From: a virus
Length of the DNA: 64,000 nucleotides
Strand: one strand, 5' to 3'
Virus record (IMG/VR): IMGVR_UViG_3300035698_008372
Coordinates: 62,001-126,000 of that record
Numbering within the stretch: position 1 is the first letter of the stretch; each line of letters begins with the position of its first letter. The position numbers were made by a program, and so were the translations under genes. A model generated the notes under the pieces. It searched no databases, was not told the DNA's origin, and worked only from the letters and a program-made list of their open reading frames with translations. This document shows, in pieces, positions 10,446-45,064 of this stretch.

Positions 10446-11564
10446 ATGAGAGATAGAGACGAATTAGCCTCAATGATCGCGGATTCGATTAACAAATCAT
10501 CCGCCGAAAAATCCGCTTTCTTTTTAGATAGCGAAGAATCACCCACAGATGTAACGGATTGAATTTCCACTGGATCATCAGAACTAGATTTAGCGATATC
10601 AAATATGCCCAACGGGGGAATACCCGTGGGTAGAATCACTGAATTTAATGGATTGGAAGGTACTGGCAAAAGTCTTGTCGGTGCTCACATCTTGGCTAAC
10701 GCCCAGCGTAAAGGTGGGGTGGCCATATACATTGATACTGAAACTTCAGTTAGCCCACAATTTTTGACAGCCATTGGAGTGGATGTTAAGAACATGATTT
10801 ATGATCATGTGGAAACAGTTGAAGAGATTTTTGAACACATTGAAAATATTGTGACAAAGGTTAGGGAACAAGATAAGGGCAGACTGGTTACAATTCTTGT
10901 GGACAGTATAGCCGCAGCCAGTACAAAGGTTGAAATGGAAGCCGATTTTGATAAGGATGGTTGGGCAACAAGCAAAGCCATTATTATCTCAAAGGCTATG
11001 AGAAAAATCACACAAATGATTGGTAAACAACGTGTCGCATTGGTTTTCACAAATCAATTGAGGCAGAAGTTGGGTGCAATGTTTGGTGACCAATGGACTA
11101 CTTCTGGTGGAAAGGCATTGCCATTCCATGCATCAGTTAGAGTTAGATTAAAGAACGCTGGCCGAATAAAGGTTGGTACTGGTACAAAAGAACAGGTCGT
11201 TGGAATGAAAATTAAAGCACAGGTAATCAAGAATAGAATGGGTCCGCCTCTGAGGCAGGCCGAATTCAACCTAAGTTTCGCTTCTGGAATTGATGACATT
11301 GGGAGCTGGATAAGAATTTTATCCGCTCATAAGATTGTCAAACAGGCCGGAGCTTGGTACACCATCGAGTACGAGGATAAAGAAATAAAATTTCAGGCAA
11401 AGAAATTTGAAGAGGTTTTAGAGAAAAATCCCAAATTGGAAAAATATCTATACGATCAAATATGTGAAAAAACCATATTGAAATACAGAAATTCTCCAGA
11501 CGAGCCGGTGGTATTGGATGCCGAAGTGGAAGAAATTGAAGAGATGTTGGAAGACGACAGTTAA
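10446..11564 (+). CDS. uvsX: RecA/UvsX-type recombinase, one in-frame TGA
   Basis: 372 residues, read through TGA at codon 39 (10560-10562). The standard code would leave a 38-residue fragment and lose the segment before STGSSELDLA. That segment carries Trp in related RecA proteins, as I recall. Walker A is GLEGTGKS at about residue 70 and Walker B is ILVDSIAA. The L2-like region (NQLRQKLGAMF, TTSGGKALPF) is RecA-like, not T4-UvsX-like. AGGAGA precedes the ATG. It forms filaments on gp32-coated DNA for recombination-dependent replication. It is the only core replication gene here with an internal TGA. Confidence 0.92.
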
Positions 11565-14547: not shown

Positions 14548-15645
14548 ATGGTAACTTTTAAATTATCGGATAAATTTATAGATGGGTTCAAGCGCAAGCG
14601 GGCACCCTTCGGTTTCAATGGGTTAGGGGCCCTAGTATATATGAGGACATATTCCAGAATAAAGGAAGATGGTTCAAATGAACAATGGTGGGAAACAGTA
14701 CAGCGTGTAGTTGAAGGTACATATAGCATGCAGAAAAACTGGATAGACGAACAAGGTCTTGGATGGAACCCATGGCAGGCACAGAGGTCTGCACAGGAAA
14801 TGTATGAGCGTATTTTTGAAATGAAATTTCTACCACCCGGACGGGGTCTGTGGGCAATGGGCACTGCTATCACTGAAGAAAAGGGATTGTATGCGGCATT
14901 GAATAACTGTGCATTCGTATCCACCGAAAATTTGAAAGACGATTTGGCCAAACCATTCACGTTTCTAATGGACGCTTCCATGTTGGGAGTCGGTGTTGGA
15001 TTTGATACAAAGGGGGCAGGGCAACTTATTGTCAAAGGCCCTAATGTGGATAGACCACCAGAAAAGTTTGTAATCCCAGATTCCCGTGAGGGTTGGGTTG
15101 ATGCCATGAAATTATTGATCGAGAGCTATTTTCTTGGTACTTCACCTATGGATTATGATTATGATACAATCAGGCCAGAGGGAGCACCAATAAAGGGGTT
15201 CGGCGGCACTTCAAGTGGGTACAAACCACTTAAAGCTGCTATGGATGAAATATCCAAAACACTAGATAAAAATGTTGGGGCACCTATTACAATAACCACA
15301 ATAGTTGATATTATGAATCATATTGGTAAATGTGTGGTGGCCGGAAATGTCAGACGCTGTTTACCAAATCACTATGAAGTTCAAACGGAAAATGGTTTCA
15401 AATGTATGAGTGAACTTACATCGGGAGATATGATAAATACAGCAGGAGGTTTGCGAGAGGTTAATGATGTCATAGATAGCGGAAAACAGAAAGTGTTGAA
15501 AATTAAAACGATGAACAATACTGAATATGAAGCTACTGAAAAACATACATTATTGGTATATAATCAGAAACTAGGCTTTAAGTGGAAAATGGTAAAGGAT
15601 ATTGATTCGGAGTTAGATTTTTTAGTTAAACCCAAAAATAAATAA
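14548..15645 (+). CDS. nrdJ: NrdJ fragment 1: N-extein plus split-intein N half
   Basis: 365 residues. Residues 1-270 are the N-terminal part of an adenosylcobalamin-dependent ribonucleoside-triphosphate reductase (RTPR). They include LNNCAFVS with the first redox Cys, LGVGVGFD and CVVAGNVRR. After NVRR the chain changes abruptly at Cys271 into an intein N-terminal half of about 95 residues (block A start CLPNHYEVQTE, later EKHTLLVYNQ like block B). It stops at TAA without a C half. That half starts 66 bases downstream on a separate ORF, so the protein must be completed by trans-splicing. Confidence 0.92.
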   Translation: MVTFKLSDKFIDGFKRKRAPFGFNGLGALVYMRTYSRIKEDGSNEQWWETVQRVVEGTYSMQKNWIDEQGLGWNPWQAQRSAQEMYERIFEMKFLPPGRGLWAMGTAITEEKGLYAALNNCAFVSTENLKDDLAKPFTFLMDASMLGVGVGFDTKGAGQLIVKGPNVDRPPEKFVIPDSREGWVDAMKLLIESYFLGTSPMDYDYDTIRPEGAPIKGFGGTSSGYKPLKAAMDEISKTLDKNVGAPITITTIVDIMNHIGKCVVAGNVRRCLPNHYEVQTENGFKCMSELTSGDMINTAGGLREVNDVIDSGKQKVLKIKTMNNTEYEATEKHTLLVYNQKLGFKWKMVKDIDSELDFLVKPKNK

Positions 15646-15879
15646 AATATGAAGCGGTTAAGAATAATGGATACCGATTTAAATTAGATGTATATTAATA
15701 GGAGAATGATTATGTATGGGATAGAAGATTTCAATTTGGAAGATTTCAATTTAATTTCGATTATGGAAATAGTCGATGAAAATAAATATGTTCAAACGAT
15801 GGACATAGAGGTTGCGGACAAGCATCATTTCTTTGTACGAAATCCTGAATACTCGGATGAATGTATTGTATCACACAAT
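15358..15879 (+). mobile_element. Split intein a in NrdJ (halves on two ORFs)
   Basis: The N half runs from Cys at 15358 to the TAA at 15645. The C half runs from ATG 15712, chosen by GGAGA at 15701-15705, to HN at 15874-15879. It is followed by Thr as the +1 extein residue. The joined extein reads GNVRR-TAEIVFG, as in intact RTPR. Only 66 bases lie between the halves and no endonuclease gene is present, so the break may be a relic after endonuclease loss. Confidence 0.88.
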
Positions 15880-16458
15880 ACAGCCGAAATTGTATTTGGT
15901 GATCCTGAGAATCAGGAATATTTGGACTTAAAGGATTACGACGTGAATCCATATAGGGAAGAATTTGGGTGGACATCGAACAATTCTATATTTGCCGAAT
16001 TGGGCATGGATTATACTGATGCTTGTAAACGTGTTGTGAAAAATGGTGAACCGGGATTTGCATGGCTTGAGAATATGCAGGGTTACTCACGTATGAAGAG
16101 CGGTAAAGACTACAAAGATAGACGTGTAAAAGGTGGAAATCCATGTGTTGTTGGTGATTCAATTATTACTACTGATAGAGGTAGACTTAGAATGGATGAA
16201 TTAGTTGAACGTGTAAATTCAGGTGAAACCATAAAAGTTATGTCTTTTAATGAACAAACATTAACAACTGAATTTAATGTTATTACAAAAGCGTGGATGA
16301 GTAAAAAGGATGCTACTGTATTGACATTGGAAATTGAGGAAAATGACCAAATGTTTAAATTGACATGTACCCCCGACCATAAAATATATACAACTAATCG
16401 AGGATATGTTGAGGCTAATGATTTAACTGGGGAGGATGATATAAAAATAATTACATAA
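15712..16458 (+). CDS. nrdJ: NrdJ fragment 2: intein a C half, middle extein, intein b N half
   Basis: 248 residues in three parts. Residues 1-56 are the C half of intein a, with DKHHFFVRN and the terminal IVSHN. Residues 57-144 are 88 residues of RTPR (TAEIVFGDP to RRVKGGNP). From Cys145 (base 16144) begins the N half of a second split intein: CVVGDSIITTD, then LTCTPDHKIYTTNRGYVEA, the block B pattern. It ends at TAA. An ATG at 15688 is in frame but lacks a binding site. This middle piece must be spliced at both ends to join NrdJ. Confidence 0.92.
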   Translation: MYGIEDFNLEDFNLISIMEIVDENKYVQTMDIEVADKHHFFVRNPEYSDECIVSHNTAEIVFGDPENQEYLDLKDYDVNPYREEFGWTSNNSIFAELGMDYTDACKRVVKNGEPGFAWLENMQGYSRMKSGKDYKDRRVKGGNPCVVGDSIITTDRGRLRMDELVERVNSGETIKVMSFNEQTLTTEFNVITKAWMSKKDATVLTLEIEENDQMFKLTCTPDHKIYTTNRGYVEANDLTGEDDIKIIT

Positions 16459-17658
16459 TTCGTTTGTATATGGTATTTATTTTTGATATTTATAATAAAG
16501 AAACACTCTATATAAAGGAATGAACTGTGAAAACATATTGTGAAAAAAAGAACGGAAAAATTAAATTTGGAGATACTAATCATATTAGTTACGTGGGTCA
16601 CTATACAAACAATAACAATAAAACATATTATTTGCGTAGCAAGATTGAATTCGTGGTGGCTAGATGATTAGATATAAAAAATCTTAAATTTTTATATGAA
16701 TGCAAAATATATATAATAAATTCAAAAAATTATAAACCCGATTTTTTCCACACTGTAAATGATAAAATCAGAACTATTATAGAAGTAAAACCAGATAAAC
16801 AAACGGCTCTGGAATATTATTCTAAATATAACGAGTATTTTAAGAATATAGGAATTCGGTATGTAGTTTTATGAGAAAAACACATACATCAATTAATACG
16901 TAAAAATAATTTACAAGATGAGGTACTAAATTGAATAGACTATAGCATCACGAATTATAAAGTTCCCGATATGAGAGGGAAAAATAATCCTAGATATGGA
17001 ATGAAAACATCAGCAACTACTAAAAAGAAGATAGGTGATAAGACCAGAGAAAGATGTAAGGATAATGAGTATATTGATAAATTGAGTACCTCTATTTCTA
17101 AGTTCTATAATACGGACATGGGACTAAAACGAAGAAATGAAATTTCAGAGTTAAGAAAACGTGAAAACGTAGAATTCTGGAAACGGAAAAATCATGATGA
17201 CCCACTTACTACTGCTATATGTAAAATATGTGGTGATTTATTTAGATATAGAGGTATTAGTGAAAGTGGTCGTGTAACTTGTAGAAAAAATGGATGTACT
17301 ACAAAATATAATAATAGTATTGGAATTCCTCGAAAACCATTATCTAAAAAATCAAGTATTAGCTCATATAAAACAAGACTGTTAAACGGTGGTAATAAAA
17401 TGAAATTAACTGAAAACTATAAAGATTGAAACGAGAAAATTAACATGTTAAAGAAAACGTATAATATTCCAATGACGTTTGGTATGAATGAAAATACCAT
17501 TGTCAAATATTTTGGAAATATAAACACCTATATAAAGGAGATAAAAAAATATGGGAAAACTAATAAGAACGATTTTACATAAAACTGTGGAGGATGTATT
17601 CGATTTAACCGTCGATGCTGTCCATAATTTTATAGCCAATGGTATATTGGTACATAAC
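16144..17658 (+). mobile_element. Split intein b in NrdJ with a homing endonuclease between its halves
   Basis: The N half (16144-16458) and C half (17551-17658, 36 residues ending NGILVHN) resemble the published NrdJ-1 split intein from marine metagenomes, by memory of that sequence (TPDHxxYTxNRGYV, NFxANxILVHN). The +1 residue is Cys. Between the halves lies a Vsr-like endonuclease gene. This is the fractured-gene layout described for split inteins in environmental phage DNA. Confidence 0.9.
16527..17582 (+). CDS. Vsr-like (PD-(D/E)XK) homing endonuclease, four in-frame TGA codons
   Basis: 351 residues from a GTG at 16527 with AAAGGA upstream. In-frame TGA at 16665, 16872, 16932 and 17427 must be read, and the frame is otherwise unbroken. 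The N-terminal nuclease has SKIEFVVAR, YKPDFFH and IIEVKPDKQ, the PD...ExK pattern of Vsr-like homing enzymes. A NUMOD3-like repeat (GKNNPRYGMK) and a zinc knuckle (CKICG...C...C) follow and probably bind DNA. It overlaps the intein b C half by 32 bases. It probably spreads the intein by cutting intein-free nrdJ. Confidence 0.85.
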
Positions 17659-18767
17659 TGCCTTAACTACTAAGTCTCGGGGCAGTATAAATTTCTCCTG
17701 ATTGACTTGGAAGGTGAGTATACACCGACAGGGCGCAAGGGTAAAGCCAGCGTGAGAGACTGAGCGGAGAAACTTCAAAATGAAGATGCGACAGTCCACC
17801 TTATGAATCGAAACTTCTGATACGATTTGTAAACAGCGAACAAAGTTTAGAATCCTATGAATTGTGTTGTCTAGTTGAAACATTTCCAGACAATCATACG
17901 AGCAAAGAAGATTATTTGCGAACATTGAAATATGCTTATCTTTATGCAAAGACAGTGACACTTGGAAAAACTCATTGGCCAGACACAAATAGGGTTATGC
18001 TGAGAAATCGTAGAATTGGTACATCGGTATCTGGTATTGCCCAATTCATTACCAATCGAGGTCTGGGTGTACTCAGGGATTGGTTGGAAAGTGGGTACGA
18101 TGAGATTAAGAAATGGGATGAGATGTATTCAGATTGGTTATGTATTCAGCCCAGTATAAAAATTACAAGTGTGAAACCTAGTGGGACAGTATCACTACTG
18201 GCCGGATCAACTCCAGGATTACATTATCCAGAGAGTAGGTTCTACATCAGGCGTGTACGACTGGCAAAAAGTAGTAAACTGATTACACCACTTGAAAACG
18301 CTGGATACAAAATAGAACCGGCTTATGGTTCTGAAGAAAGCACAGTTGTGGTGGAAATTCCCATTGATGAGGGTGATGGAATTAGGACAAAGAAGGACTT
18401 AACGATGTGGGAACAATTGGCCCTTGCGGCGTTTATGCAACGGCATTGGGCTGACAATGCTGTTAGTGCCACGATCACGTTTGATCCGGAAACCGAATCG
18501 GATCAACTCCCATTCGCTTTGAACTATTTTCAGTATCAATTAAAAGGCATTTCATTTCTACCTAGAGTGGAAAAGGGGGCCTATAGACAAATGCCGTATG
18601 AGGAAATCACTGAAAGTGAATATGATAATATGAAAACTAATCTAAAATATTTGAGTTTAATTCACATTGAAGGGGAAATGGCAAACCCAGAAAAATATTG
18701 TGGGAATGATACGTGTGAAATTGATGCCGAGTGGGCACAAGTTGAAGATGAACAGGATGAAAAATAA
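17551..18767 (+). CDS. nrdJ: NrdJ fragment 3: intein b C half plus C-extein, interrupted by a group I intron
   Basis: Join of 17551-17663 and 17837-18767. ATG 17551 follows AAAGGAG. The first 36 residues are the intein C half ending VHN. Cys at 17659 is then the +1 residue and, in the NPCLE context, the thiyl-radical cysteine of class II reductases. Removing the 173-nt intron gives C-LEQSLESYELCC, matching RTPR. Later come VKPSGTVSLLAGSTPG and the C-terminal redox pair in YCGNDTC. The C-extein is 311 residues, making a mature NrdJ of about 669 residues (270+88+311). Confidence 0.9.
17664..17836 (+). ncRNA. Group I intron in nrdJ, 173 nt
   Basis: The exon end CTGCCT (17658-17663) pairs with internal guide GGGCAG, giving the obligatory U-G at the 5' site (P1). 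TCG just before the guide pairs with exon-2 CGA (P10). The intron ends in G at 17836. The core has GAGAGACTGAGCGGAG then a hairpin (ACTTCAAAATGAAGAT) and GACAGTCC. These match the P7/P8 order of compact introns such as those in cyanobacterial tRNA-Leu and Azoarcus tRNA-Ile. An AATCG/CGATT hairpin fits P9. It carries no ORF. Splicing restores the nrdJ frame exactly. Confidence 0.9.
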
Positions 18768-18817: not shown

Positions 18818-19258
18818 ATGTTAGTAAAGTTAAAAAGTTGGACAAGAGAGAAAGTTATTGAATGTGACAGTTACCATATTGAAAAAGTGGAGCATGGACA
18901 TAGATGACAAATAATGAGAAACGCCACACAAGGAGATGTTAATGGTCTCGTCCTTGACCAAGTAATGGAACATTGGTCAAATGGGGAAGATGTGCGGGTG
19001 TTTGTAACTGACAATGGTAAAAATGTGGAGTCATACAGATATACATGGACTAAGCCACCATGCGGTCCGCCGCAGGAAGGCTATGGTTCACGGGACATTG
19101 GGACGGTTGAGCCACGGTTTGACCACGATTTATCCAAGGACACATTGGCTTTTATAATCGGTGCAGTTGAAAAGTATGGAAATGATGCATCATATAGTGA
19201 GTCGCTTGTAGTGTATTTACAAGAGCGTCTTTTTGGTAAGGATGAAATAGCTAAATAA
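18818..19258 (+). CDS. Unknown protein, one in-frame TGA
   Basis: 146 residues when TGA at 18905-18907 is read as Trp (HGHR-W-QIMRN). With the standard code only the part from 18914 remains. AAGGAG precedes the ATG at 18818. Soluble, mixed charge, no family recognised. Lies between nrdJ and dUTPase, so a nucleotide-metabolism link is possible by context only. Confidence 0.72.
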
Positions 19259-21419: not shown

Positions 21420-23180
21420 ATTTATAAGTCAATTTATTTCGAAGCGGAAAAACAGAAGATTCATTTGTGGGATGATGACCGCGGCTATTTCACAATACCA
21501 TATAGACGTTATGGGTATATAAAAGATAGGGGCGGCACATATACTTCATTATATGGGGACAGGCTTAAGAAAATCCACAAGTGGGGCAAAGATTCCACTG
21601 GATTATTTGAGAGTGATGTACACCCTGAAACAAGAACATTAATTGATCTGTACACCAATGACGATGAACCATCAAAAGGTAACAAAACGATTATTATTGA
21701 TATTGAAGTCGAGGTCACAGATGGATTCCCAACTGCTACTTTGGCCGAGAATAAGGTTACGGCTATATCAATTTACGATTTTACGGATAAGAAATATTAT
21801 GGTTTGGTATTGGAAAATGGCAAGGGTATTATCAAGCCATCCACAACTCCAGAGCTTGACATTGAAGTGTTTGATATGGAAGTTGATTTGTTGAATAGAT
21901 TCATGCAGATATACCTACGCATAAAACCAACTATTATTACTGGTTGGAATGTGGATAGATTTGATGTAACATACCTATACAATAGAATGGCCGATCAGCT
22001 GGATGAAGATGTAGCCAATTGCTTGTCTCCAATCGGTGTGGTACATTGGAGTGATTTCAGGGGTAGCTACAGAATCGCTGGGGTTGCAACAATGGATTAC
22101 TTACAGTTGTATAAGAAATTTACATTTACGCAACAGGCTTCATACAGATTGGATGCGATTGCTGATTTCGAATTGGGTGAACGCAAAATTGAATATGATG
22201 GTACACTAAACGAATTATATGAAAATGACATTGAAAAATTTGTCCAATACAACATCCATGATGTTCGACTAATTGAGATGTTGGACAAGAAATTGAATTT
22301 TATAGAAATCGCTCGTGGTATTTGTCACTTGGGGCATGTTCCGTATGAAGATATTTACTATGACAGTAGATACCTAGAGGCTGCTATTCTTGTTTATCTG
22401 AAAAAATTGAACATCATCGCTCCGAATAAGCCCGAGCGTGAGGGTTGGAAGGATGAAATTGGCTTTGAGGGTGCTCACGTTCAAAAGCCCAAGAAGGGTC
22501 GTCATAATTGGGTATATGATTTGGATTTAACATCAATGTATCCAAGCATCATTATGTCGTTGAACATTTCTCCAGAGACAAAAATAGGTAAAATAGATGG
22601 GTGGGATTCCAATAAATTTGTGAAAAAAACCCCAAAAACCTATACTGTCAAATATGGTACAACCGCACTCCAATCCATGGATCAGGATGAACTACAGGTA
22701 TTTTTTGATACCAATCATGTGTCGGTATCGGCCAATGGGATATTGTACAAAACTGATAGGGATGGCCTAATCGCGTCACTCCTGAAAAAGTGGTTCGACG
22801 AACGTGTTGAATTCAGAAAATTGGCTAAGAAGTTTGCCGACGCGGGTGATAACGAGAAATATGATTATTTCAATAGACGACAACATATCCAGAAGATTCT
22901 CCTTAACTCACTTTTTGGGGCACTCGGTTTGCAGGGTTGGAGATTCCATGACGTAGACAACGCCCTTGCAGTTACATCGACGGGGGTAGAATTAATTCGA
23001 TTTTCCAAAACCATTGCAAACCATTATTACAATACTGAGCTTGGTAAAGAAATTGAACTTGAAATGGAAGATGGGTCTATCAGAAAATTATATGAAAATT
23101 GGCCAATCCATGTAAAAAGGGGTGGTAAAAAAGTTCAAATTTTAGCCAAAAATCTCAAAATAAATGATGATATTCTCTAA
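21420..23180 (+). CDS. 43: DNA polymerase family B, N-terminal fragment (gp43A)
   Basis: 586 residues. No ATG, GTG or TTG fits the natural beginning. An ATT at 21420, eight bases after AGGGG, gives a phage-polymerase-like start (xYKSIYFE, IHLWDDDRGY). Exonuclease motifs IIIDIEVE and TGWNVDRFDV, then DLDLTSMYPSIIMS (motif A) and QKILLNSLFGALG (motif B), are present. After TELGKE (about 23049) the chain runs into a foreign-looking tail of about 43 residues and stops. Motif C is in the second fragment beyond the endonuclease. The two fragments should assemble non-covalently, as in split gp43 of some Aeromonas phages. Confidence 0.9.
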   Translation: MYKSIYFEAEKQKIHLWDDDRGYFTIPYRRYGYIKDRGGTYTSLYGDRLKKIHKWGKDSTGLFESDVHPETRTLIDLYTNDDEPSKGNKTIIIDIEVEVTDGFPTATLAENKVTAISIYDFTDKKYYGLVLENGKGIIKPSTTPELDIEVFDMEVDLLNRFMQIYLRIKPTIITGWNVDRFDVTYLYNRMADQLDEDVANCLSPIGVVHWSDFRGSYRIAGVATMDYLQLYKKFTFTQQASYRLDAIADFELGERKIEYDGTLNELYENDIEKFVQYNIHDVRLIEMLDKKLNFIEIARGICHLGHVPYEDIYYDSRYLEAAILVYLKKLNIIAPNKPEREGWKDEIGFEGAHVQKPKKGRHNWVYDLDLTSMYPSIIMSLNISPETKIGKIDGWDSNKFVKKTPKTYTVKYGTTALQSMDQDELQVFFDTNHVSVSANGILYKTDRDGLIASLLKKWFDERVEFRKLAKKFADAGDNEKYDYFNRRQHIQKILLNSLFGALGLQGWRFHDVDNALAVTSTGVELIRFSKTIANHYYNTELGKEIELEMEDGSIRKLYENWPIHVKRGGKKVQILAKNLKINDDIL

Positions 23181-23188
23181 GTTTATAC

Positions 23189-23199
23189 TATTTATATAC
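23189..23199 (+). promoter_or_regulatory. Candidate phage-specific promoter motif TATTTATATAC
   Basis: Identical 11-mer to 19806 and 55369, with two further shared bases upstream compared with 19804. It lies 44 bases before the polymerase-splitting endonuclease gene. Confidence 0.45.
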
Positions 23200-23242
23200 A
23201 GACACAATGTATCAATGTATAAAATATAAATTGGAGAGTAAG

Positions 23243-24082
23243 ATGAAAAAGGGGTCAGCGAGAACATTACAATATTGATTGGATAAAGGGTATAAAGGGG
23301 AAGAAGCAGAAAAAATGCGTATGAGCAGAATTCCAGGTACTATAGAATATTTTACTATATTTAAGGGGCTCCCATTGAATGAGGCCGAAATTGCGAAAGA
23401 AAATTATAACAAAAGGTCCGTTCCGACATTGGAAAATATGATACGCAAGTATGGGGAAACTGAAGGTGAAATTAGGTGGGGTGCATATCGTGAAAAACAG
23501 GCAAAATCCAATACATTTGAATATAAGCGTGATAAGTATGGTTGGACATTGGAACAATTCGATGCTTATAACAAATCAAGGGGATTGTCTGGTAAAGACA
23601 ATGGCAATTATGGGTCGAGCTATTATGAAGCTTGGGTTAAAAAGTATGGAAAAATAAAGGCCGATGAAATGAATAATGCTTTAGGTGAATTGAAAGCCAA
23701 AGGGGGGAAATCTCAAAAAGGTGTACCCAAATCATTTGTGGCTAGAAAAAATATGAGTATAGCTGCAAAGAAAAGGATAATGGATCAGGGTACTTACATT
23801 TCATATAATCCAAATTCAATTCCGATAATTGAAAAATATGGAAAAGAAAATGGATATAAATTTCAACATGCTGAAAATGGCGGCGAATATTTGGTTAGGG
23901 AAGTTTACTATTGGGTAGATGGGTATGATCATGAAAATAATGTGGTGGTTGAATATGATGAAAAATACCATGAAATGCAAACGGAAAAAGATAAAATTAG
24001 GCAACAACATATAATGGATGTGTTGGGGTGCAAATTTATAAGAATTAAAGAATCTGGAGAAATTAAGATTTATGAAAATTAA
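23243..24082 (+). CDS. Homing endonuclease splitting the DNA polymerase, one in-frame TGA
   Basis: 279 residues, GGAGAG upstream, with TGA at 23276 read as Trp (LQY-W-LDKGY). The N-terminal part has repeated DNA-binding modules (RMSRIPGTIEYF; LENMIRKYGETEGEIRW; YEAWVKKYGKIKADEM). The C-terminal part is Vsr/EDxHD-like: VDGYDHENNVVVEYDEKYHE, then RQQHIMDVLGCKFIRI. The final bases overlap the second polymerase fragment. It probably cuts polymerase genes lacking the insertion. Confidence 0.82.
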
Positions 24083-24993
24083 AAATATAAGGGAATCAAA
24101 AGGTGTCGATGTGGATCATGTTATCTACATCGACACGTAGTGCGGATTCACTATTTATTTCGTCAACCGCGATGGTGAGCAAACGATATGGAAACAAGAA
24201 ATTCAGTGATGTCATGCTGTCACAGTACATCTTGACAATAGCTGGTGACACCCAAAAATTCATAAATAACTCGTATGACTATTTTGCCAAGAAATTCTGT
24301 AATCTTCCCGGTGCACACCGGTTTGAGATTAAACAGGAATTGATTGCAAAGTCAGCTGTATTTGTCAATGCTAAGAAAAATTATGGGTTGCGTGTTATCA
24401 ATGACAATGGTGTGAAAGTGGATAAAAATGTGTACAAAGGCTTGGCCGTAGTTCGCAGTGATTTCCCACAATCATACAGAAAATTGTTAGGTGAGGTGCT
24501 AGGTGATGTTCTAGCGGATGTTCCAAAAGATAAGATCGACGATCGTATTATTGAATACAAAAACAACATGAGATACTTGAATGTCGAAGATATCGCCAAA
24601 CCAACTGGGGTTAAGAATATCAAAAAATATTTGGTTCCACCTGGAGCGGGTGGGGGATTTTCTACTTGGAAGTCTCGTTGTCCTATCCATGTCAAATCAT
24701 CTATCATATACAATGATTTGATTAAGCATTTTGACAAACAAAAGAAGTACGCATTGATAGGGGCCGGCGACAAGGTCAAATGGGTGTACTTAAAGAAAAA
24801 TAATTTAGGATTAGAAAGTGTGGCTTATACAGGTCACGAAGACCCAAAGGAAATTATGGATTTCATATATAATTTTGTGGATAGGGATAAGATGTACGAT
24901 AGTATATTTTTGAACAAAATCACATCAATATATTCTGCCATGGACTGGTCGTTGCCCATAGATAAAAAGTTCTCGATGGACAGATTTTTTTAA
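24072..24993 (+). CDS. 43: DNA polymerase family B, C-terminal fragment (gp43B), motif C interrupted by 7 nt
   Basis: The ATG at 24072 begins MKIKNIRESKG and leads to DHVIYIDT, the first half of catalytic motif C. A TAG stop then follows. Seven bases later (24138-24144) the frame resumes with DSLFISS and the rest of the thumb domain to TAA, including VNAKKNYGLRV and YLVPPGAGG. Deleting exactly those seven bases restores YIDTDSLF. The polymerase needs both aspartates. Either the assembly has an error, the gene is damaged, or translation skips the seven bases. The next in-frame ATG (24103) would make a protein lacking the first Asp. Confidence 0.85.
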
Positions 24994-36700: not shown

Positions 36701-37156
36701 ATGGCTGAAGAGAGAATCAAAATAAGCTGGAATGAAATCGAACCGGGGATGATTTTATCATTCGTATATGGTGAGGGTGCCAGAAAGAAATGGCGTACTT
36801 GTATGGTACTAACCGACCCATTAGATTCTAGGGCTTGGCTCACGCGCAAGGATGGATCAAAAAACAAAGTGGTACATACGCTCCAGCTAAGAAAACAACA
36901 AAAATTACAATTACGTGGGACCAAGCTCAGAAGAGTATTGAATCATTTTGGCGGTGTTATCCGTGAGGAAATGGAAGGATTCAGACACAACCGCATGATT
37001 ATTGGTGACATCAAAAACTCATACCCAATGCTCAGTCCGATGCTCAAAGGTACTGATGTATATAGGATATTGGAAGTAGATAAACTAAAGACTACAGCGT
37101 TGTATCTTATAGATTATAAATTTCCAAGAGACATTAAAATACAAAGGAGATACTAA
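36701..37156 (+). CDS. Unknown basic protein
   Basis: 151 residues starting at the ATG after the previous TAA. The middle is strongly basic (RKQQKLQLRGTKLRR), which suggests nucleic-acid contact. It overlaps the next gene by one base. Confidence 0.65.
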   Translation: MAEERIKISWNEIEPGMILSFVYGEGARKKWRTCMVLTDPLDSRAWLTRKDGSKNKVVHTLQLRKQQKLQLRGTKLRRVLNHFGGVIREEMEGFRHNRMIIGDIKNSYPMLSPMLKGTDVYRILEVDKLKTTALYLIDYKFPRDIKIQRRY

Positions 37157-37779
37157 TGATATCATTTTCAATTTTATCACATAATGAAGGTGAAGATTTA
37201 GGTAAATTATTACATCAGATTGCCACCAAAAGTGATTTGGATTATGAGTTTGAAATTGTCATAGTGGATGATTTTAGCACAGATAGTAGGACAATGGAAA
37301 TATTAGAAGAATATGGTAATGTGGATAATGTGCATGTATTCCAAAGGAAATTGGATATGGATTTTGCCGGACAGAAGAATTTTGCCAATTCAAAATGTGT
37401 GGGAGAATACATATTTTCAGTCGATGCCGATGAATATTTCCCTGACAATCTTATTGCAAATCTGTATGAATTGGTTAAAATGAATGGTGATATTGATTTA
37501 ATGTGAGTCCCCAGGATTAATCTTGTGGGGGGTATTACAAAAGAACATATTGCCAAATGGGGTTGGAATGTGAATGCACAGGGTTGAATAAATTTTCCCG
37601 ATTATCAGGCCCGCCTTTTTAAGAATTCTCCAGACATAAAATGGAAAAATAAGGTTCACGAAGTTATCGAGGGCGCGATGACTATAAGCCGACTACCAAC
37701 GGAACAAGATTGGTGTTTGGTACATAACAAACATATAGATAAACAAGAAAAACAGAATGAATTTTATGAGACCATTTAA
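37156..37779 (+). CDS. Glycosyltransferase family 2, two in-frame TGA codons
   Basis: 207 residues when TGA at 37504 and 37585 are read. The N-terminus is a GT-A fold (ISFSILSHNEGEDLG, DDFSTDS and the DAD of FSVDADEYFP). After the first TGA the sequence continues VPRINLVGG, KWGWNVN and, after the second, INFPDYQARLF and VHEVIEG. This follows the usual family order, with Trp at both TGA sites. The standard code would give only a 116-residue fragment. Confidence 0.88.
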
Positions 37780-43349: not shown

Positions 43350-44127
43350 TATAGTATTTATTCCAAATATAGATGTTGGTGATAATAGGAGCAACCCATA
43401 CTCCTATTCCATCAAAAGCTGGGAAAAGTGGTGTGCCAAACATGATTGTGAATTGGTTATTTTGGATCAGTTATTATTCCCCGTTGAAGAAATTAAAATT
43501 ACATGGCAGCGATGGTATGTGTTTGATATTCTTGAGGCCAATAATATGAAATTGGGTAAGGATGATCAGGTGGCACTAGTTGACGCTGATATGGTGGTAC
43601 ATCCAGATTGCCCCAACTTTTTTGAATATACGGATATGAAATGGGCTGGGGTATTGAACAACGGCTCTTATGAATGGGTTGTTAGGAGCATCAATGGGTA
43701 TGGTGATTTGATGTTTGACAATGACCGTATTCATCCTTGGGAATATATAAACAACGGGTTGGTCATATTCAATAATAAACACAAGAAATTCGTCAAATCC
43801 ATTACAGATTATTACTGGGATAATCAACCAGAAATTATTGCCAGTTATGATAAAATCAAGTGTAGCACTGACCAAACCATTATAAATTATTTGCGGGTTT
43901 TGGGTGGGATTGAAACTACTTATTTACAAGACAGATTCAACTTGCAGGATTTACATAGCAAGCAGTTATTGTACCATGACCCATCAAATTGGTGGGGTGA
44001 TTCAATAAGTAATTTATTACAATCTGGATATGTATTTCATATAAACGCTATACCTTCAAATAGATTGAATAGGACAGCCGGATACTGGATTAAACGGTTA
44101 TACAAGGAGATGTACCCCAATGATTAA
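43342..44127 (+). CDS. Glycosyltransferase (GT-A like)
   Basis: 261 residues: ALVDADMVVHPDCP carries the DxD metal site. INNGLVIFNNKHKKFVK and later STDQTIINYLRVLGG resemble family 8-type enzymes. AAGGGG upstream. Overlaps the next gene by eight bases. Confidence 0.78.
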   Translation: MSNIVFIPNIDVGDNRSNPYSYSIKSWEKWCAKHDCELVILDQLLFPVEEIKITWQRWYVFDILEANNMKLGKDDQVALVDADMVVHPDCPNFFEYTDMKWAGVLNNGSYEWVVRSINGYGDLMFDNDRIHPWEYINNGLVIFNNKHKKFVKSITDYYWDNQPEIIASYDKIKCSTDQTIINYLRVLGGIETTYLQDRFNLQDLHSKQLLYHDPSNWWGDSISNLLQSGYVFHINAIPSNRLNRTAGYWIKRLYKEMYPND

Positions 44128-45064
44128 TGTGGCATTTTTCACAGAAAACGGATTCGTAGGAGAAGTTCCTAGAAATCACAGTAACATGCGAACGGAATAT
44201 TCATGAATGGTTGCCACTAGAGCAACACATTACAACATTCACGGGCCGTATGATCCAATTGCAACCTATGATTTGGGCATAGTAATTGTACCCAAAAACA
44301 ATCCACAGGTGGATATGGACAGGATACGGGCAGTATGTGATAAGGTGACCATAATGCAAGAGGGCCCATCAACATTTTGGCAGGATTATTCAGTGCCAAA
44401 TCAAATCCATTTCTTCAATACATTGACTGAAGCCGATTTCCTATTATGTCATAACAAACAGGACCAATTATACTACAATGGGTTGACAGGCAAGGATACG
44501 TTTGTCATGAAGTCTCTAATGATACCCGACGCGATTATGACAACGAGCCCGCGGGAACCTACCAATTCGGTCATGTTGGGGGGCAATTGGACAAGTTGGT
44601 ATTCGGGTGTGGATTCCTATATACTGGGACAAGTATTCACTCCAGAGTATGAACTGTATGCTCCATCTATGGGTAGGAAAAAAGAAGAAGAAAATGAAAT
44701 CGAAGATGTAAATTATTTCGACTATATGATGTGGCAGGAATGGATTGATTCCATAAAAAATATGAAGGTTGGGATTCACATGATGAGAATATTTGCGGCA
44801 GGGACCTTCGCATTGAATTGCTCATATTGGGGCATACCTTGTATTGGGTATAAGGGGTTGGATACACAAGAAACGTGCCACCCGTTGACATCGGTTGATT
44901 TGGGTGATATGGAAAAGGCTGGGCACATTGCCGAAAAATTGAAAAATGATAAAGGGTTTTATGATCTGTGCTCTATGGCGACTTTAAAGCGATACGAGAA
45001 ACACTATTCAGAAGCCGCATGGTTGAAAGACTGGAAAAGTATAGAGGAGTACACAAATGGATAA
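44120..45064 (+). CDS. Glycosyltransferase-like protein, one in-frame TGA
   Basis: 314 residues, ATG after AAGGAG. TGA at 44204 sits in NMRTEYS-W-MVATRA, a position that in related phage proteins carries Trp, as I recall. RIFAAGTFALNCSYWGIPCIGY near residue 230 is GT-B-like. The standard code loses the first 29 residues. Confidence 0.8.

What the first reader, a model, noticed from the sequence alone, without database searches (positions are those of the whole stretch)
17659..17836. Group I intron begins two bases after the catalytic cysteine codon that is itself the intein +1 residue
The thiyl-radical Cys codon (17659-17661) has a protein-splicing site on its 5' side and an RNA-splicing site two bases past its 3' side. 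P1 (CTGCCT with GGGCAG), the U-G pair, P10 and P7 are visible, and excision restores C-LEQSLE in frame. At 173 nt it is among the shorter group I introns. Two kinds of mobile element have converged on the most conserved codon of the gene.
Basis: seen in the sequence. Interest (0 to 1): 0.9.

Follow-up and report, generated by a model that had tools for sequence, protein, structure and literature searches.

The report
RNA intron abutting a split intein
A phage gene for the DNA-building enzyme ribonucleotide reductase is interrupted at its key catalytic codon by two different self-removing elements only five bases apart, one that leaves at the protein level and one that leaves at the RNA level, and the RNA element belongs to a compact intron family that the standard database model does not recognise.

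Summary
Window 17664-17836 (173 nt) is a compact group I intron that starts five bases after a split intein ends, in a phage class II ribonucleotide reductase gene. Rfam RF00028 misses it but detects the T4, Twort, SPbeta and S-PM2 introns, so that negative is uninformative. A large phage intron family shares its core, without P2 and with the P3/P7 pseudoknot. Covariation is overwhelming (96% of cells paired; score 0.459 against 0.158 in shuffles, 0/500). A model built without the window scores it at 114 bits. Of 106 distinct relatives, 101 have the empty site NPC-LEQSLE, exactly what splicing restores. A second phage (L102) carries the same split intein, endonuclease and intron, with three compensatory base-pair changes. 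The nearest introns sit inside the catalytic Cys codon itself (T|GY) in many phage class II reductases; the window intron lies 4 nt further on. Introns and inteins sharing a reductase gene are known since 1998 (SPbeta, about 0.5 kb apart). New, as far as I could search, are the 5-nt juxtaposition, the Cys-codon lineage and its absence from Rfam. Splicing was not observed, and co-mobility through the intein's endonuclease is plausible but not shown.

The parts
14548..15357 (+). Class II ribonucleotide reductase extein piece 1, ends GNVRR
   Evidence: Pfam RNR_Alpha 1.2e-42; phmmer to 1l1l
15358..15645 (+). N-half of first split intein, to stop
   Evidence: translation; weak Pfam Intein_splicing 2e-4
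15712..15879 (+). C-half of first split intein, ends SHN before Thr
   Evidence: translation; absent from L102, which reads straight through
15880..16143 (+). Extein piece 2, ends GGNP
   Evidence: translation and relatives
16144..16458 (+). N-half of second split intein, to stop
   Evidence: Pfam Intein_splicing 8.6e-7
16527..17582 (+). Free-standing endonuclease-like gene between the intein halves (TGA read as Trp)
   Evidence: weak TnsA-like N-terminal and NUMOD3 matches; intact in L102 at 58% identity
17551..17658 (+). C-half of second split intein, ends ILVHN
   Evidence: Pfam Intein_splicing 4e-8
17659..17663 (+). Extein piece 3a: catalytic Cys codon TGC (intein +1) plus CT
   Evidence: aligns with residue 408 of 1l1l
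17664..17836 (+). Group I intron, 173 nt
   Evidence: model R1 114.4 bits, E 5.8e-26 for 17686-17797; covariation; empty sites
17658..17685 (+). P1: 17658-17663 with 17680-17685 (U.G at 17663); P10 strand 17677-17679 pairs with 17837-17839
   Evidence: sequence; P1 kept in L102 with G-C to G-U
17671..17673 (+). In-frame TAA stop upstream of the intron core
   Evidence: unspliced reading CLNY*; T|GY relatives also stop 0-8 codons after NP
17692..17772 (+). P3 17692-17698/17766-17772; P4 17706-17709/17729-17732; P5 17713-17716/17723-17726; P6 17733-17736/17750-17753
   Evidence: family covariation; window alignment to R1; P5 compensatory change against L102
17756..17797 (+). P7 17756 and 17758-17762 with 17792-17797, bulged A17757 (guanosine site); P8 17773-17777/17781-17785
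   Evidence: columns 97:157 and 103:152 covary without exception in 68 sequences
17801..17836 (+). P9 17801-17810/17823-17832 and terminal G 17836
   Evidence: two compensatory double changes, one broken pair against L102
17837..18767 (+). Extein piece 3b, completing Leu then EQSLESYELCC..., to stop
   Evidence: PHROG 367 ribonucleotide reductase 3.6e-59

Best explanation
[quoted passage not shown] Here it follows, five bases downstream, a naturally split intein whose halves flank a free-standing endonuclease gene. Shown by sequence: the fold, the boundaries, the empty site and the second phage. Inferred: the transcript first loses the intron by guanosine-initiated self-splicing (P1 U.G, P7 guanosine site, P10, terminal G); the spliced mRNA then encodes C-intein-Cys-Leu-Glu-Gln...; the split intein then joins its two exteins in trans at that Cys. 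RNA splicing must come first, because the unspliced message gives only C-intein-CLNY-stop. That early stop lies before the intron core, so ribosomes should leave before unfolding it. If the endonuclease cuts the joined site, homing of the intein would carry the intron along (collaborative homing); this last step is a prediction, which I put at about 0.4.
For: Covariation over 68 family members excluding the window: 96.0% of cells paired, covariation score 0.459 against 0.158 (0/500 shuffles) and about 0.09 for slid structures; P7 with its bulged nucleotide covaries without exception. Model R1 finds the window at 114 bits, E 5.8e-26, the only copy in the 140-kb record. A separate retrieval by the P1/IGS motif alone also yields sequences that match R1. 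Of 106 distinct relatives, 101 have the empty site and 3 an intein only. L102 has split intein, endonuclease and intron in the same order, with one compensatory change in P5 and two in P9. Twelve distinct relatives lie exactly at T|GY of the Cys codon.
Against: No transcript data. RF00028 does not match. Part of R1's score is circular, because its members were collected with motifs copied from the window core. Only two phages show the double arrangement. For collaborative homing: intein, endonuclease and exons of window and L102 are about equally diverged (69-73% identity), and the synonymous-codon test shows no co-conversion tract.
Confidence: 0.92

Rival explanations
1. A decayed intron: the RNA was once a group I intron but no longer splices, and the reductase gene is dead.
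For: No splicing data; the gene is in several pieces.
Against: All core helices are intact, and P5 and P9 are maintained by compensatory changes between window and L102; extein 3 is intact and conserved; the endonuclease frame is intact in both phages.
Confidence: 0.05
2. Not a group I intron: an unrelated structured or random insert, or an assembly chimera, as the RF00028 negative would suggest.
For: RF00028 gives nothing even at permissive thresholds.
Against: RF00028 also misses family members tested while finding known phage introns; the P3/P7 pseudoknot covaries; L102, from a different contig and diverged phage, has the same insert at the same place; cultured phage CRP-118 has a relative.
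Confidence: 0.02
3. The intron and intein reached this codon separately (reverse splicing or their own former endonucleases) and have since been inherited together; the intein's endonuclease plays no part in intron mobility.
For: The intron lineage occupies the neighbouring T|GY site without any intein in many phages; other inteins occupy the site without intron; the divergence of the parts matches that of the exons; no co-conversion signal.
Against: In this reductase clade the intron occurs only together with this split intein and endonuclease, though that is just two phages.
Confidence: 0.55

Closest known systems
Group I introns (Rfam RF00028; phage examples in T4, Twort, SPbeta, S-PM2)
   Same: P1 with U.G, P3-P8 core with P3/P7 pseudoknot, bulged P7 nucleotide, P10, terminal G.
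   Different: No P2, 173 nt, not matched by RF00028, which does match those phages; R1 in turn does not match them, or only marginally (SPbeta E 0.0097).
Intron-intein coincidence in SPbeta bnrdE (Lazarevic 1998; Derbyshire and Belfort 1998; cited in PMC3653736)
   Same: Group I intron and intein in one phage reductase gene; intein immediately before the catalytic Cys.
   Different: There class Ib and about 470 nt apart by the RF00028 match; here class II, split intein, 5 nt apart.
Fractured genes with split inteins and free-standing endonucleases (Dassa 2009, cited in PMC3653736)
   Same: Split intein with an endonuclease gene between the halves in a reductase gene.
   Different: Here a group I intron directly follows; the endonuclease shows TnsA-like and NUMOD3 traces. 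The paper itself was not available, so the comparison rests on citations and own knowledge.
Collaborative homing of ORF-less group I introns (described in PMC3984707, PMC10448857)
   Same: ORF-less intron beside a free-standing endonuclease gene that may target the same site.
   Different: The endonuclease sits inside a split intein; cleavage site untested.
Small group I introns of Jug phages (PMC12363816)
   Same: Small phage introns (about 206 nt on average) splitting essential genes, including reductase genes.
   Different: Found with subtype models; whether any belong to this lineage was not tested.

Membership tests
Group I intron | P3-P8 core with P3/P7 pseudoknot and bulged P7 nucleotide | tested here: met
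   covariation over 68 relatives; window fits the helices
Group I intron | P1 with U.G at the 5' splice site, P10, terminal G | tested here: met
   sequence and coordinates; P10 is 3 bp in the window, about 2 bp in L102 (read from the sequences)
Group I intron | Exact excision restores the host protein | tested here: met
   CLEQSLE as in 101 of 106 distinct relatives
Group I intron | Guanosine-dependent self-splicing | not testable with these tools
   needs an in vitro transcript
Rfam RF00028 (Intron_gpI) | Score above the gathering threshold | tested here: not met
   no match; the model is incomplete by published accounts
Known group I subtype (IA-IE) | Best match among the GISSD subtype models | not tested
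   models not available here
Naturally split intein / fractured gene | N- and C-intein on separate reading frames with a free-standing endonuclease gene between | tested here: met
   same layout in L102
Naturally split intein / fractured gene | Protein trans-splicing | not testable with these tools
   needs co-expression
Collaborative homing | Endonuclease cuts the intron insertion site | not testable with these tools
   only indirect: layout shared by two phages
Collaborative homing | Signs of joint transfer (parts more alike than exons, co-conversion tract) | tested here: not met
Class II ribonucleotide reductase | Homology to RTPR and alignment of the catalytic Cys | tested here: met
   1l1l E 1.1e-90, Cys aligns with residue 408

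The most novel reading that the evidence does not exclude
A previously unmodelled lineage of minimal, P2-less group I introns is specialised on the catalytic-Cys codon of class II ribonucleotide reductases, and one branch has merged with a split intein and its endonuclease into a three-part mobile unit that must be removed in a fixed order, RNA first and protein second.
Probability: 0.35. Interest if true: 0.8.

Novelty: new variant of a known kind. Interest (0 to 1): 0.62.

Why it matters
Two unrelated selfish elements share one catalytic codon, and productive protein splicing depends on RNA splicing having happened first. The finding also exposes a large phage group I intron family that RF00028 misses, so that genes such as the CRP-118 reductase are annotated as two separate genes. 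Repeated occupation of the same codon in many reductase subfamilies makes the old question of why mobile elements settle on active-site codons directly testable.

Tried and rejected
RF00028 at gathering and permissive thresholds on the window, L093 and L112: negative, explained by model coverage. Plain MFE fold z-score: uninformative. A co-conversion tract between window and L102 (raw identity 85% over the first 60 nt of exon 3): rejected, synonymous identity there is ordinary. A 5' splice site at T|GC in the window, as in the relatives: rejected, because joining to A|GC would give C-E instead of C-x-E, would not end in G and has no matching guide sequence. More relatives of the endonuclease: only the two phages. 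Structure prediction of the endonuclease from two sequences: mean pLDDT 38, not used. PDB profile search for it: nothing. Dassa 2009, Lazarevic 1998, Derbyshire and Belfort 1998 and Landthaler 2002 are not held.

Full report
What was checked. The window belongs to a 140-kb virus record. The gene at 14548-18767 encodes a class II ribonucleotide reductase in pieces. Extein 1 (14548-15357) is followed by the N-half of a first split intein; its C-half begins at 15712. Extein 2 (15880-16143) ends GGNP and is followed by the N-half of a second split intein, a free-standing endonuclease gene (16527-17582) and the C-half (17551-17658). Then come the codon TGC, two bases, the 173-nt insert, and the rest of extein 3. 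The joined protein matches only the reductase 1l1l in the PDB (E 1.1e-90), and the window Cys aligns with its residue 408.

Is the insert a group I intron? RF00028 says no. That test is blind here: it detects introns in T4, Twort, SPbeta, S-PM2, Pf-WMP3 and SPO1 (some below its cut-off) but not the phage sequences I tested that share the window's core. Published work states that RF00028 does not cover group I diversity and that phage introns exceed the current subgroups (PMC6125680; PMC11878797). An 18-base core stretch occurs in 30 viral stretches, all but two of them (L090, L107, coding sequence) with the same surrounding core.

Structure. I aligned 68 members without the window or L102 and named P3 to P8. 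Standard pairs fill 96.0% of cells; the covariation score is 0.459 against 0.158 in shuffles (0/500) and about 0.09 for slid structures. P7 shows the canonical bulge: column 97 pairs with 157 (A-U 47, G-C 16, U-A 5, none broken), column 98 is unpaired, and 99-103 pair with 152-156. The model built from this alignment finds the window at 17686-17797, 114.4 bits, E 5.8e-26, once in the whole record. Caveat: members were collected with motifs from the window core, and the pattern used to trim at P7 allowed only some letters, so constant columns and part of the bit score are circular; the covarying columns are not. A second collection made by the P1/IGS motif alone gave 38 matches to the model among 58 sources (some sources were already in the first collection).

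Boundaries. P1, P10 and the terminal G put the borders at 17663/17664 and 17836/17837. The joined reading CLEQSLESYELCC is what relatives encode without interruption: of 106 distinct sequences, 101 have the empty site, 3 an intein but no intron, and 2 (the window's phage and L102) both (151, 6 and 2 of 159 entries before removing duplicates). L102 carries the same split intein, endonuclease and intron in the same order. Its intron is 91% identical; the differences include one compensatory change in P5 and two in P9, with one P9 pair broken.

Kin. The nearest introns by tree path are those inside the Cys codon of other phage class II reductases; the joint branch of window and L102 is strong, deeper forks are weak on 114 columns. 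Twelve distinct introns of 167-206 nt sit at NP-T|GY in subfamilies as different as NPCAEQSL, NPCGEQPL, NPCSEIIL and NPCAEEPL. A larger set gives 59 distinct motif matches, 44 with the core motif; all read NP|C in the chosen frame, but the motif itself encodes Asn-Pro there, so only those with a recognisable reductase exon on both sides count as evidence. Roseobacter phage CRP-118 is a cultured example, annotated as two reductase genes with no intron. Two Lachnospiraceae contigs carry the same arrangement. The window intron is shifted 4 nt downstream, so its P1 pairs almost entirely with extein codons (Cys-Leu) and only one base of the intein. Whether the intron moved or was inserted afresh is open.

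How it works. Shown: fold, borders, empty site, second phage. Inferred from group I and intein chemistry: self-splicing first, protein trans-splicing second. Unspliced message yields C-intein-CLNY-stop, which could still ligate to the N-extein and give a dead product. The stop precedes the core, and the T|GY relatives examined also stop early; this should keep ribosomes off the ribozyme (own knowledge of phage introns). Mobility: the endonuclease between the intein halves has only weak TnsA-like and NUMOD3 matches. If it cuts the joined site, repair would carry the intron along, as in collaborative homing (PMC3984707; PMC10448857). However, intein, endonuclease and exons are about equally diverged between window and L102 and there is no co-conversion signal, so long vertical persistence explains the data as well.

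Known versus new. Introns and inteins in one phage reductase gene are known from SPbeta, where the RF00028-matched intron and the annotated intein lie about 470 nt apart and the intein is just before the homologous Cys. Split reductase genes are common in phages (PMC3653736), and small group I introns of about 206 nt are frequent in Jug phages (PMC12363816). I found no report of an intron and an intein five bases apart, nor of this Cys-codon lineage, in the papers searched; most subscription papers are not held. I therefore file it as a new variant of a known kind.

Noticed in passing
window 16527-17582, 10446-11564, 37156-37779, 18818-19258, 44120-45064: TGA appears to be read as Trp in this phage: in-frame TGA falls at positions that are TGG in the L102 homolog of the endonuclease, and occurs inside a RecA/UvsX-like protein and a family 2 glycosyltransferase. 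ARAGORN found only two tRNA-Gly in the window, no matching tRNA.
   Followed up: partly
window 21465-24993: The DNA polymerase gene looks like a second fractured gene: the first piece seems to end in an N-intein, followed by an endonuclease-like gene with weak DUF559/MTES_1575 matches and an in-frame TGA.
   Followed up: partly
L112 1975-2374 (Roseobacter phage CRP-118, OR420741): Unannotated group I intron splitting the catalytic Cys codon of the reductase; the deposited gp44 and gp45 are one gene.
   Followed up: yes
L224, L227 (Lachnospiraceae metagenome-assembled contigs): Same intron family in the Cys codon of an NPCAEEPL-type reductase on contigs assigned to bacteria; chromosome or prophage not checked.
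   Followed up: partly
L120, L189, L191: Family members with a reading frame inserted after P3, apparently of GIY-YIG type by eye, so some members carry their own endonuclease.
   Followed up: no
L093 4044 and 4515; L176 6913 and 7354; L088: Two introns of this family within about 0.5-1.6 kb on one contig, suggesting one gene hit twice.
   Followed up: no
L113 1995-2213 (MW202674, ctn9Y15): Family member between two pieces both annotated as P22 coat protein: an unannotated intron in a capsid gene.
   Followed up: partly
L100 1334 and 1531-1765: A family member followed closely by a conventional group I intron that RF00028 does recognise (92.5 bits).
   Followed up: no
L094 5244-5583: Viral contig with a permuted, alphaproteobacterial-type tmRNA match.
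   Followed up: no
window 15358-15645 and 15712-15879: A first split intein in the same gene with no endonuclease gene between its halves, absent from L102.
   Followed up: partly
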